In this document: positions 61,303 to 64,000 of the stretch, piece after piece | Layout: every line of letters begins with the position of its first letter | How positions within the stretch are numbered: the stretch's first letter is position 1 | DNA from: Methylotenera sp. | GTDB taxonomy: Bacteria; Pseudomonadota; Gammaproteobacteria; Burkholderiales; Methylophilaceae | Assembly (NCBI GenBank): GCA_013141075.1 | Contig: JABFRQ010000003.1 | Location: forward strand, 1-64,000 | DNA: 64,000 nucleotides | Reading direction: 5' to 3' | The notes under the pieces: model-generated | What the model saw: the letters and a program-made list of their open reading frames with translations, nothing else | The model's database searches: none | What the model was told of the DNA's origin: nothing | Made by a program: the position numbers and the translations under genes

Positions 61303-63810
61303 CTAGACCTCAAACACCGCATCTACCGCCCGCATTAACCTATCGGTTTCTGCAAGTGCGGCGATTATTTTTTGGTAATGCGCAATATCTTCATAATTGA
61401 GCGTACGGCCTTTGCGGTCTTTTAGCCATTTTTGTGCGGGTTGATAGCCGCCAATGTAGAAGTTCCAAGCCAGTTCTGGCACATTTTCAAAATACTGCGT
61501 GGCGTTAATGTACACTTTGCCAGCGTCAAAGCTTGGCTTATCTACTACGTTATTACCGCCTACTGGGTAGTTAATGGCGTAGCTAATAGGCATGCCCTGC
61601 GAGCCAGTATCCATGCGGGTCGCAGGGCATGCCTCTAGCAGATGTGTTTGGCGTAATTGGCCACCTAAAGCCACTAATTGCCAAAAAATGGCGGCATTTT
61701 TTGGGTAAGGCACGCGCGGAAAATCTATTTTTAAAAATTCTTTATAGGTTTCGCGGTAGCGCGGGCTGTGTAATACAGCATAGATGTAATCCAGCAAATC
61801 AATCGGCGCAAAGGTTTTTAATTCCCCTTCTGTAGAAGGGGTGGCACGAAGTGACGGGGTAGTTGTATTTAATTTCACCAACTCAATCACACCACTCAAA
61901 CTCTTTTTAACTTCAATATCCTGCACATGCAAAACATTCAAACCTAGCCCTTTTAGAAATACGTCACGTTGGGCATCATATTCTTGTTTATCATCATGCG
62001 TGCTACCGTCAATCTCAACAATCAGCGCACATTCATGACAATAAAAATCAACAATGTAATTGCCAATCACACGTTGCCTATCAAAATCCAATCCGTTAAG
62101 TTGCTTGTTTTTAACTGCATTCCAAAACAGCACCTCACTTAAATTGCCTGCTTTACGAAGCTCACGCGCTCTTTCTTTTAGGGCGGGGTTATAGGGTAGG
62201 TCGTTTAACTTCGCAACTACCCCGTCACTTCGTGCCACCCCTTCATTTTGAAGGGGAATTTTTTCAGGAGTAAAACTTAGCCCCAAGCCCTGTGCAATGG
62301 CGCCCACAATTTGCATATTAAGGTTGGGCGTGCGGGTGGTTTCGGCGAGTAAGTCGGTGGAGTTAGGGTAAAGATAAAGTGGCGCAACATATGCCTTAGA
62401 AAACATAGTTCCTAAAACGTGAGACTCTACCAAGTTACTGCTAATAAAAATATTTGTATAATCACCTAATGTAAAGCCACGCTCAAAAATTAGAGTTGAA
62501 TTTTCATTGCTGAAAAAATGTTGCATGACTTCATTTCTAGGCCTACCCATAATGCCATTGCTTTTTCCAGTATAAATTGAATACTTAAAGTCAAATGGCC
62601 TGTAGCTGATTTTTGCTATTATGGGCTTATTATTAGCGACATCTACAATAGCCTTTTGCAGCTTATCTTTTTTATCTATTTCTATTTTATGTTTAGATAA
62701 AATATCGCTTAAAGGCATTGTTAATAAATCATTGAGCAAGTTACGCGCTTCATTTTCAGTTTGCTGAATCGCGCATTCGTCAAACTCAGTTGTTAATCCT
62801 GCGTTGTACAAAGGAAATAGCTCGCTTAGCACAAACCCATTTTCATAAGTCTTTTCCAAATCAAAATCTTTGACCGTAAAGAAATAATCAGGCGCTTTCA
62901 CTTCCAACCGTTGCCATGGCAAACTCGCAATCGCACCCGCATTTAAAGCCTCATATTTGGCTTCGCGCTTGCCATATAAGCTGTGGTGAAATACTTTGGC
63001 TAATTGTTTGCCACCTGCAACTACCCCGTCACTTCGTGCCACCCCTTCATTTTGAAGGGGAATCACTGCTTTAAATTCCCCTTCTTTAGAAGGGGTGGCG
63101 CGTAGCGACGGGGTAGCAGTTTTAACAAACAAGTTAATGCTCACGCCTTGCATAATATCAAACACGTTTTCATCTTTGCTGCCATCGGGCGCGGTTTCTT
63201 TCTTTTTAGCGTTGCCGTGCAGGTCTAAAATGTAAATTTCATCAAAACTTTCTAACAAGTTTTTACGCATTTGGCGGTGAATTAAGCCATCAATAAAGCT
63301 GTTGTTGCTAATGTAAGCCAGCACGCCTTCGCCATTTTTATCAATAAAGTGTTGCCCAAAGCGGATGAATTTTATGTAATCGTCTGAGAGCGGTTGTATG
63401 TTGCGCTCGTTCAAATCTTTTTTGTAATCCACCAGCAGATTTTGAATCCAATCACTTTTGTTGCTGCTGCTCACGCTATAAGGCGGGTTGCCCATCACCA
63501 CCATCACAGGCGCATCGCGCTTAATGCGGTTGGCTTCGTTGGCCTCTGCGCTTAAATAGTTAAACAGCGGCAAATCGGGCGCGTCGTCGTTTTCTAAACT
63601 ATTAGTGAGGTAAATGCGCAGGCGGTCTGCCGCGCTGTCGTTTACGTAGCCTGTTTCTGTTAGCAGCATATCCAGCTTTAAGTGTGCCATGGCGTAGCTA
63701 GTCATCAGCAGCTCAAAGCCGTTAAGCCGTGGAATCAAATGCTCTTTTACATATTGCGGCCACATGCCTTGCATATTGCTAAACTGTTTGCCGTAAATGT
63801 GGCGCACCAC
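61303..63810 (-). CDS. Type ISP restriction-modification enzyme, methylase and specificity part, with in-frame repeat and DUF559 insertions
   Basis: C-terminal 835 residues of a single-chain type ISP (LlaBIII-like) enzyme, which normally unites Mrr-like nuclease, helicase, N6-adenine methylase and target-recognition domains. The methylase motif IV is VVMGNPPYSVSSS near residue 105 of this frame; motif I (DPATGTGTFL) lies just upstream, past a frameshift at 63895-63899. The C-terminal specificity region includes FAPIDLLDYIYAVLHSPRYR and AWNFYIGGYQPAQKWLKDRK. Three foreign pieces interrupt it in frame: an empty repeat pair (63017-63116), a DUF559 nuclease domain bounded by repeats (61821-62259), and a palindrome (61589-61633). 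The nuclease and helicase parts lie beyond the right edge. A small Tudor-like partner follows 3 bp later. Confidence 0.85.
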   Translation of the reverse strand: MVRHIYGKQFSNMQGMWPQYVKEHLIPRLNGFELLMTSYAMAHLKLDMLLTETGYVNDSAADRLRIYLTNSLENDDAPDLPLFNYLSAEANEANRIKRDAPVMVVMGNPPYSVSSSNKSDWIQNLLVDYKKDLNERNIQPLSDDYIKFIRFGQHFIDKNGEGVLAYISNNSFIDGLIHRQMRKNLLESFDEIYILDLHGNAKKKETAPDGSKDENVFDIMQGVSINLFVKTATPSLRATPSKEGEFKAVIPLQNEGVARSDGVVAGGKQLAKVFHHSLYGKREAKYEALNAGAIASLPWQRLEVKAPDYFFTVKDFDLEKTYENGFVLSELFPLYNAGLTTEFDECAIQQTENEARNLLNDLLTMPLSDILSKHKIEIDKKDKLQKAIVDVANNKPIIAKISYRPFDFKYSIYTGKSNGIMGRPRNEVMQHFFSNENSTLIFERGFTLGDYTNIFISSNLVESHVLGTMFSKAYVAPLYLYPNSTDLLAETTRTPNLNMQIVGAIAQGLGLSFTPEKIPLQNEGVARSDGVVAKLNDLPYNPALKERARELRKAGNLSEVLFWNAVKNKQLNGLDFDRQRVIGNYIVDFYCHECALIVEIDGSTHDDKQEYDAQRDVFLKGLGLNVLHVQDIEVKKSLSGVIELVKLNTTTPSLRATPSTEGELKTFAPIDLLDYIYAVLHSPRYRETYKEFLKIDFPRVPYPKNAAIFWQLVALGGQLRQTHLLEACPATRMDTGSQGMPISYAINYPVGGNNVVDKPSFDAGKVYINATQYFENVPELAWNFYIGGYQPAQKWLKDRKGRTLNYEDIAHYQKIIAALAETDRLMRAVDAVFEV
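61589..61633. repeat. GCCCTGCGAGCC-family palindrome inserted in frame in the type ISP gene
   Basis: GGCATGCCCTGCGAGCCAGT then ATCCATGCGGGTCGCAGGGC plus ATGCC, the same family as the intergenic copies at 20531, 26160 and 55824. Here it encodes ACPATRMDTGSQGMP between LLE and ISYAINYPVGGNN, in a variable loop of the specificity domain, and keeps the frame. Confidence 0.85.
61821..62259 (-). mobile_element. DUF559 nuclease module bounded by inverted repeats, inserted in frame
   Basis: Left repeat 61821-61865 (ATTCCCCTTCTGTAGAAGGG through GACGGGGTAGTTG) and right repeat 62213-62259 are inverted copies. Between them about 347 bp encode a complete DUF559 domain: NDLPYNPALKERARELRKAG, SEVLFWNAVKNKQLNGLDFD, RQRVIGNYIVDFYCHECALI, VEIDGSTHDDKQEYDAQRD and LKGLGLNVLHVQDIEV. 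The Asp of VDFYC and Glu-Asp of VEIDG match the PD-(D/E)xK-type active site of this Vsr-like family. The domain has no start codon or stop of its own and is read only as part of the host enzyme. Host sequence resumes at FAPIDLLDYIYAV. It is an insertion, not an intein: no splicing motifs are seen. Confidence 0.8.
63017..63116. repeat. Empty back-to-back copies of the DUF559-associated repeat, in frame
   Basis: 63017-63063 is identical over 47 bp to the right repeat of the DUF559 module (62213-62259). 63075-63116 is an inverted copy. Only 11 bp separate them, so there is no cargo. Each copy has a CCCCTTC/GAAGGGG hairpin and a CAC-GAA-GTG hairpin. In 63075-63116 the latter is CGC-GTA-GCG, a compensatory change. 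The pair encodes about 33 in-frame residues (TPSLRATPSKEGEF and IPLQNEGVARSDGVVA). Confidence 0.85.
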
Positions 63811-64000
63811 TTGCGCTAAAAATGTGCCTGTGCCCGTGGCTGGGTCTAGTATTTGTACTTTGTGAATCTCTTTAGCTAATGTTTCTGTTTTGCCTTTTTG
63901 CCTGCGCCTTGCACTTCTACTTTAACAGTAGTTTTGCTGGTGTCGCCCAAGCCTTGCGGTAAATTAAACTTGATTTTTAAAATGTCATCTACCGCGCGCA
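63811..64000 (-). pseudogene. Upstream part of the type ISP gene, separated by a one-base frameshift; continues past the right edge
   Basis: On the minus strand, one frame reads AVDDILKIKFNLPQGLGDTS and KTTVKVEVQGAGKK and then hits a stop. The next frame picks up KGKTETLAKEIHKVQILDPA and TGTGTFLAQVVRHIYG, joining the long downstream frame. The break is at the T5 run 63895-63899 (A5 on the coding strand); six would restore the frame. The methylase motif I (DPATGTGTFL) lies just after it. Either the gene is freshly inactivated or this is a base-calling error in a homopolymer. Confidence 0.75.

What the first reader, a model, noticed from the sequence alone, without database searches (positions are those of the whole stretch)
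61821..62259. A DUF559 nuclease domain carried as an inverted-repeat-bounded module inside a type ISP restriction enzyme
Seen: inverted 45-47-bp repeats flank a complete DUF559 coding segment without start or stop codon, and host homology runs up to the left repeat (FTPEK) and resumes after the right (FAPIDLLDYIYAV), all in one frame. Known: DUF559 proteins are Vsr/PD-(D/E)xK-like and RAYT enzymes mobilise REP palindromes. Inference: the nuclease and its repeats form a mobile unit that enters coding genes without killing them, in the manner of a homing domain but without protein splicing. It may also give the host restriction enzyme a second nuclease.
Basis: partly seen in the sequence, partly recalled or inferred. 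Interest (0 to 1): 0.8.

Follow-up and report, generated by a model that had tools for sequence, protein, structure and literature searches.

The report
Nuclease-carrying palindrome element inside genes
A small bacterial nuclease gene bracketed by mirror-image hairpin repeats sits in reading frame inside a restriction-enzyme gene, and the same kind of unit turns up in many other bacteria, sometimes inside essential genes, which suggests a widespread selfish element that rides inside proteins without being cut out.

Summary
In detail: a DUF559 nuclease domain lies in frame in a type ISP gene between inverted hairpin repeats. A second repeat pair, without nuclease, lies 0.8 kb away. Relatives have empty sites. 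The pattern is general: pyrimidine/purine hairpins lie within 300 nt of 102 of 104 DUF559 loci against 24 of 525 shifted windows, and of 48 of 48 in a second, partly overlapping sample. Repeat type tends to follow the nuclease tree. Units also sit in frame in ValS, Mfd, PriA, HrpA, MmeI and YgiQ (profile matches on both sides) and in HsdM, IspE and an M14 peptidase (profile on one side). The own genome, 90% complete, shows no Y1/RAYT transposase. Best explanation: a REP-like mobile element whose dedicated enzyme is a Vsr/homing-like nuclease, read through as an unspliced internal domain. Association, in-frame residence and empty sites are shown; movement by the nuclease is inferred. Purifying selection on the ISP copies leaves a role in the host enzyme open. 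Nine open-access searches showed no paper tying DUF559 to palindromic repeats, mostly judged from listings.

The parts
61303..63810 (-). Type ISP restriction-modification gene, host of the insert (stop-free frame to 63921; the N-terminal part lies in another frame further up)
61816..61869 (+). Terminal repeat (3' end in gene direction): outer hairpin TTCCCCTTC..GAAGGGG, mini-hairpin linker, tail GGGGTAG towards the nuclease; read as TTTPSLRATPSTEGELK
61876..62181 (-). DUF559 (PF04480) PD-(D/E)XK / Vsr-like nuclease domain with the conserved D, E, D and H
62213..62259 (-). Terminal repeat (5' end in gene direction), inverted to the first; read as IPLQNEGVARSDGVVA
63017..63063 (-). Second repeat pair, first member, 47 of 47 nt identical to 62213-62259, in frame in the same gene
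63070..63123 (+). Second repeat pair, other member; no nuclease between

Best explanation
The unit (about 444 nt, 61816-62259) is one copy of a REP-like mobile element: terminal palindromes plus a dedicated DUF559 nuclease of the Vsr/homing-endonuclease type. The ends have no stop codon in the frames used, so an insert of a length divisible by three in a permissive linker leaves the host protein made, with the nuclease as an unspliced internal domain. Single repeats and repeat pairs are its non-autonomous forms. Likely mechanism (inferred): the nuclease recognises its cognate hairpin ends, cuts or nicks a target or a solo repeat, and host repair copies the unit in. Shown: association, cognate pairing, repeats elsewhere in the genomes, empty sites, in-frame residence in unrelated genes. 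Inferred: cutting, copying, and that DUF559 drives it.
For: Hairpin within 300 nt: 102 of 104 DUF559 loci against 24 of 525 shifted windows, then 48 of 48 against 17 of 176; 0 of 30 GIY-YIG genes, four of them placed only roughly and only 7 of the 30 in strong-DUF559 genomes. Flanking inverted repeat score 18 or more: 50 of 77 against 0 of 533 (one N-run locus removed), 29 of 48 against 1 of 176. Two or more genomic hairpins: 18 of 22 genomes with a strong DUF559 match, 6 of 121 without, p 2.6e-14. Window-type repeat: 5 of 5 genomes with the window-type nuclease, 2 of the other 145. Repeat type on the nuclease tree: 26 changes, shuffled 42, 0 of 200 as low. In-frame units with host profile on both sides: ValS, Mfd, PriA, HrpA, MmeI, YgiQ, ISP. 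Empty sites: ISP, YgiQ, a single 45-nt repeat in G102 against 5 empty genes. In G150 the DUF559-bearing ValS is the only ValS match over cut-off, and the model runs 3-209, 207-474, 473-796 across the inserts. Nearest solved relatives: 3hrl (E 1.3e-38) and 3r3p 'Mobile intron protein' (E 9.7e-5).
Against: No transposition or cutting is shown, and no target-site duplication could be defined, since insertion sites are variable linkers. In the own genome the window-type repeat occurs only inside this one gene (4 copies). The ISP-type nuclease has stayed at one ISP site in 4 species with dN/dS 0.05-0.10, as a useful domain would. Many in-frame hosts are restriction-modification genes, which a random inserter should not favour (background not tested). 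The inverted-repeat score alone fails for 27 of 77 loci and 19 of 48. Inverted repeats of other families also flank 5 of 30 GIY-YIG genes. Samples overlap: L253 is the L169 locus, L101 the L076 locus. Repeat types C and G do not cluster on the tree.
Confidence: 0.7

Rival explanations
1. Domesticated domain: the unit came in once as an insert but is now a working second nuclease of type ISP (and other R-M) proteins, kept for restriction.
For: dN/dS 0.05-0.10 in 8 computable of 10 pairs, several with dS above 1; same site in 4 ISP genes; many in-frame hosts are R-M genes: ISP, MmeI, HsdM.
Against: 5 of 10 close ISP genes were read as without it and a sixth has no DUF559 match on its contig; the ISP frames of the window and of G102 are interrupted; the same kind of unit sits in ValS, PriA, HrpA, Mfd and YgiQ.
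Confidence: 0.13
2. The repeats are moved by a RAYT-like Y1 transposase and DUF559 is a passenger.
For: REPs with GTAG tails are linked to RAYTs in print (PMC3733652, passages); the window repeat happens to end in GTAG.
Against: No PF01797 match in the own genome (90% complete), and none in 9 of 28 genomes tested that bear the repeats. Nearly every DUF559 locus has the hairpins, and repeat type tends to follow the DUF559 tree.
Confidence: 0.05
3. DUF559 is a host nuclease that acts on G-rich hairpins (repair or control of the repeats) and sits next to its targets for that reason, without moving itself.
For: Kinship with Vsr-type nucleases (PMC1189080, passages on YcjD); a Caulobacter DUF559 protein is implicated in DNA damage and proposed as a mismatch-repair enzyme (PMC12907096, passages).
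Against: Does not explain inverted flanks at both ends, empty sites, and presence inside unrelated coding genes of distant bacteria.
Confidence: 0.12

Closest known systems
REP elements with RAYT transposases (REPtrons)
   Same: Short palindromes, dispersed single and paired copies, a dedicated gene flanked by inverted copies, some copies inside genes (PMC3733652, abstract and passages)
   Different: Enzyme is a PD-(D/E)XK nuclease, not an HUH tyrosine transposase; own genome has no Y1 match; the gene itself can be fused in frame into host proteins
Rickettsia palindromic elements (RPEs) and CGTC-tagged REPs
   Same: Palindromes read in frame inside genes; CGTC REPs are said to lack a dedicated transposase (PMC3733652, PMC10969869, passages)
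   Different: Here the element carries a nuclease; stems are CCCTCTCCC/GGGAGAGGG-like or CCCCTTC/GAAGGGG, not the AT-starting stem of CGTC REPs
Vsr-like homing endonuclease of PDB 3r3p ('Mobile intron protein'; name I-Bth0305I recalled)
   Same: Related nuclease domain (E 9.7e-5); a selfish nuclease placed in host genes (recalled)
   Different: Phage intron context (recalled); ours has no intron or intein and has flanking hairpin repeats
Inteins with homing endonucleases
   Same: Nuclease read in frame inside essential proteins
   Different: Pfam shows no splicing domain; the insert stays in the protein as far as the sequence shows
YcjD / PRK09767 / COG2852 DUF559 proteins
   Same: Same domain family; YcjD placed near Vsr in print (PMC1189080, passages)
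   Different: The passages seen describe them as proteins, without repeats

Membership tests
DUF559 (PF04480) nucleases | Profile match over the curated cut-off | tested here: met
   102 and 107 bits against cut-off 20.6
DUF559 (PF04480) nucleases | Conserved acidic and His residues of the PD-(D/E)XK/Vsr type | tested here: met
   E26, D55, E66, D68, H72 invariant in 28 of 28 rows; one row of the 23 has H for the last D; catalytic role recalled
REP/RAYT system | Short palindromes with inverted flanking copies round a dedicated gene | tested here: met
REP/RAYT system | HUH tyrosine (Y1) transposase | tested here: not met
   No PF01797 match in G000, nor in 9 of 28 genomes tested, G000 among them
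CGTC-tagged REP / dRS3 | CGTC tag next to an 8-9 bp stem starting with AT, short tail | tested here: not met
   Window stem is CCCCTTC/GAAGGGG; the letters CGTC occur only within the linker
RPE | Palindrome inserted in frame in a gene whose relatives lack it | tested here: met
   Sites in the ISP gene; sequence kinship with RPEs not tested
Homing endonuclease | Cuts the empty allele and is copied in by repair | not testable with these tools
   Needs bench work
Intein | Splicing domain around the nuclease | tested here: not met
   Only repeats and short linkers flank DUF559; no Hint domain among the Pfam matches

The most novel reading that the evidence does not exclude
DUF559 nucleases are the dedicated mobility enzymes of a third, bacteria-wide class of REP elements. 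Each nuclease clade has its own hairpin ends, built as pyrimidine arm, purine arm and a third G-rich strand that mirrors the purine arm, possibly folding as a triplex. The complete unit lives as a translated, unspliced module inside proteins, essential ones included, which would supply a mobility model for RPE-like coding palindromes.
Probability: 0.5. Interest if true: 0.92.

Novelty: new variant of a known kind. Interest (0 to 1): 0.8.

Why it matters
Palindromes that sit in frame inside bacterial genes have been known since 2000 (RPEs, as cited in PMC10969869), and CGTC REPs are described in print as apparently lacking a dedicated transposase (PMC3733652). A nuclease that is paired with its own class of such palindromes, and is itself found in frame in valyl-tRNA synthetase, PriA and others, gives that open question a testable enzyme type. 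It would also give a role to a common domain of unknown function (145 of 398 genomes sampled in the phylum) and a natural source of internal domain fusions in restriction enzymes.

Tried and rejected
RAYT as agent: the own genome has no Y1 match. Our repeat as a CGTC REP: the CGTC letters are in the linker only. Native ISP domain: 5 of 10 close ISP genes read as empty, a sixth without DUF559 match on its contig. Target-site duplication: looked for by eye in the YgiQ and ISP alignments, not definable because the linkers vary. E. coli presence/absence polymorphism: a Cedecea DUF559 stretch found no match. A plasmid search listed 50 records with DUF559 and was not followed. The first mirror count mixed both strands and was weak (182 against 107); it was repeated on ends with a G-rich tail only, a choice that may favour a G-rich match of either kind. 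A G-quadruplex reading of the tail is possible for GGGAGAGGG types, but the window type has only two long G runs; neither that nor a triplex was tested. Structure prediction never ran. Genes interrupted out of frame were not counted, so no in-frame excess is claimed. R-M enrichment among hosts was not tested against a background.

Full report
Observation. The window holds a type ISP gene on the minus strand (61303-63810) with a DUF559 domain in frame between two inverted repeats. The arms are identical over 31 nt and carry an outer hairpin (TTCCCCTTC..GAAGGGG), a linker that can form a mini-hairpin, and a tail GGGGTAG pointing at the nuclease. A second pair, 63017-63063 and 63070-63123, lies in frame in the same gene with no nuclease between and with hairpins inward. 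The core pattern occurs 4 times in the window and 0 times in 100 shuffles; in the own 2.48-Mb genome (90% complete), with up to 3 mismatches, it occurs only at these 4 places.

Empty sites. Of 150 genomes of the same family, 13 matched the ISP C-terminal part, with 14 matches. Ten matches had 70% identity or more. Four of these carry the DUF559 unit (G000, G134, G102 and one of two ISP genes of G131), all with repeats. The site was read in five of the other six: four have a six-residue linker between FT(P/T)EK and F(A/S)PI, and G036 has a different palindrome pair read as VIPAKAGIH..MDSHFHGND. G055 was not read; its frame is 1057 aa and one search shows no DUF559 match on that contig. Three other places in the ISP gene also took repeats in some species and not in others; the cleanest is a single 45-nt repeat in G102 against five empty genes. 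In genus g22 the YgiQ gene of G038 holds a unit in frame (904 aa). Of the 13 other YgiQ matches, 11 have frames of 730-750 aa and 2 are shorter (586 and 375 aa). Seven of the 13 were aligned at the site and all seven are empty, with the left junction at the first bases of the palindrome.

Generality. A genome-contig scan with a DUF559 alignment kept the best 80 of at least 584 relatives, from several phyla. In 78 with enough flank, the best flanking inverted repeat scored 18 or more in 51 (50 of 77 without one locus that matched on runs of N), against 0 of 533 shifted windows of the same loci; a direct-repeat score of 18 or more was reached in 29 of 78, as expected when both flanks hold palindromes. 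Pyrimidine/purine hairpins lie within 300 nt of 102 of 104 DUF559 loci (the 80 named, and 24 of the 26 family loci; L074 and L086 were left out), against 24 of 525 shifted windows. A second sample of 48 loci from 398 genomes of the phylum (28 of the 29 new best loci, one dropped at a contig edge, and 20 taken down the list) gave 48 of 48 against 17 of 176 windows, and inverted repeats in 29 of 48 against 1 of 176. L253 in that sample repeats L169. As a control, the 30 best GIY-YIG genes of the same 150 genomes had no such hairpin (0 of 30), though four were placed only roughly, only 7 lie in genomes with a strong DUF559 match, and 5 of the 30 are flanked by inverted repeats of other families.

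Cognate pairing. A hairpin pattern was found in 30 of 30 DUF559 genomes tried (chosen from the 80 loci), 3 to 333 copies each including those at the nuclease, against 0 to 5 for the pattern with arms swapped. In the 150 family genomes, 18 of 22 with a strong DUF559 match had two or more hairpins, against 6 of 121 without; 7 weak-match genomes were set aside (0 of 7); Fisher 2.6e-14. The window-type repeat is in 5 of 5 genomes with the window-type nuclease and 2 of the other 145. On a tree of 81 nucleases with a typed repeat (22 untyped left out), the seven repeat types need 26 changes, shuffled mean 42.0, 0 of 200 as low. Types A, B, D, E and F cluster, C and G do not; the tree is poorly resolved (8 of 78 branches starred) and contains near-copies. 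The own genome's two nuclease genes have different repeats.

Anatomy of the ends. The nearest hairpin has its G-rich tail towards the nuclease on 121 of 135 sides where it could be told, 47 undetermined; loci with runs of N were left out. The tail resembles the mirror image of the purine arm with one A changed to T (GGGGGAAGG - TTA - GGATGGGGG; GAAGGGG .. GGGGTAG). Among 148 ends with asymmetric arms and a G-rich tail the mirror match beat the direct match in 84, lost in 22, tied in 42 (ends are not independent). In the window type the 3-nt linker is replaced by a mini-hairpin whose middle pair is A-T in four and G-C in three of seven variants and broken in none, and three further variants have longer stems, one with a G-T pair. 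This fits a nucleic-acid structure, perhaps a triplex; no folding test was made.

Residence in other genes. Of the 80 named loci, 13 met a simple long-frame criterion. Profiles of the host lie on both sides of the unit in ValS and Mfd (both from Rickettsiales AM-377-L16), PriA and HrpA, and in the family in MmeI and YgiQ and ISP. In HsdM (L072, L169), IspE and an M14 peptidase the profile covers one side and the other side was recognised by eye. In HsdM of L155 the unit lies near the C end and the frame meets the contig end. A methylase-like gene of G084 has no Pfam hit other than DUF559. The remaining long frames were not shown to be inserts. In the ValS gene the model continues across the unit without loss (3-209, then 207-474) and across a second insert (473-796), which is a repeat pair with hairpins outward and no nuclease, like the unit without its middle. 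It is the only ValS match over cut-off in that genome, whose completeness is not given.

Selection. Five window-type domains give dN/dS 0.05-0.10 in 8 computable of 10 pairs, with dS often above 1, similar to the host C-terminal part (0.05-0.11, 3 computable of 6). The 28-nt repeat core is identical between species whose nuclease dS exceeds 1, which points to constraint or gene conversion at DNA level. So the nuclease is kept working, either for the element or for the host enzyme. The ISP frame of the window is interrupted further up (around 63879-63921) and that of G102 likewise, but G134 and G131 have single frames of 1308 and 1331 aa.

Enzyme. The profile finds PDB 3hrl (endonuclease-like protein, E 1.3e-38) and 3r3p (mobile intron protein, E 9.7e-5). 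Vsr (1cw0) appears only at E 0.27, below unrelated chance matches, so this search does not itself establish the Vsr link; PMC1189080 reports it for YcjD (passages). PF01797 (Y1 transposase) is absent from the own genome and eight more of 28 genomes tested.

Literature. Nine searches of the open-access library. No paper holds both DUF559 and 'inverted repeat'; two hold DUF559, repeat and palindromic and look unrelated from the listing. I read passages of PMC3733652 (abstract), PMC12907096, PMC1189080 and PMC10969869; the other listed papers were judged from the listing. Most subscription journals and preprints were not covered, so novelty is provisional. [quoted passage not shown] the class here fits neither GTAG/RAYT nor CGTC.

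Verdict. A real and general element. Association and in-frame residence are shown; movement by the nuclease is the best inference.

Noticed in passing
L217 (G006:C1:959834-960055), L210, L211, L223, L227: 5 of 30 small GIY-YIG nuclease genes are flanked by inverted palindromes of other families; that of L217 (TGTCATTCCAGCGCAAGCTGGAATCCAG) looks like a CGTC-type REP. GIY-YIG nucleases may be a partner of CGTC REPs, in parallel with DUF559.
   Followed up: partly
L092 (G036 ISP gene), site between FTTEK and TFAPID: The same ISP linker that holds the DUF559 unit in the window holds a different in-frame palindrome pair (VIPAKAGIH..MDSHFHGND) in G036.
   Followed up: partly
window 63879-63921: The ISP frame of the window is interrupted here: the N-terminal part lies in another frame (L037 8880-10010). 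Pseudogene or sequencing error not decided.
   Followed up: partly
window 61588-61634: Another inverted repeat (18 nt, 94%) in frame in the ISP gene, read around ACPATRMDTGSQGMPI; the G102 protein has no counterpart there, so it may be a further palindromic insert.
   Followed up: no
own genome G000:C7:14528-14842 and G000:C10:59491-59786: A free-standing DUF559 gene flanked by CCCTCTCCC-type repeats, and a broken DUF559 remnant.
   Followed up: partly
L113 5234-5359: ValS of a Rickettsiales genome carries a second in-frame insert: a repeat pair with hairpins outward and no nuclease, as if the nuclease had been deleted from a unit.
   Followed up: partly
L270 (G445:C63): DUF559 in a 1223-aa frame that looks by eye like a type I restriction subunit (HsdR); not checked with profiles.
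   Followed up: no
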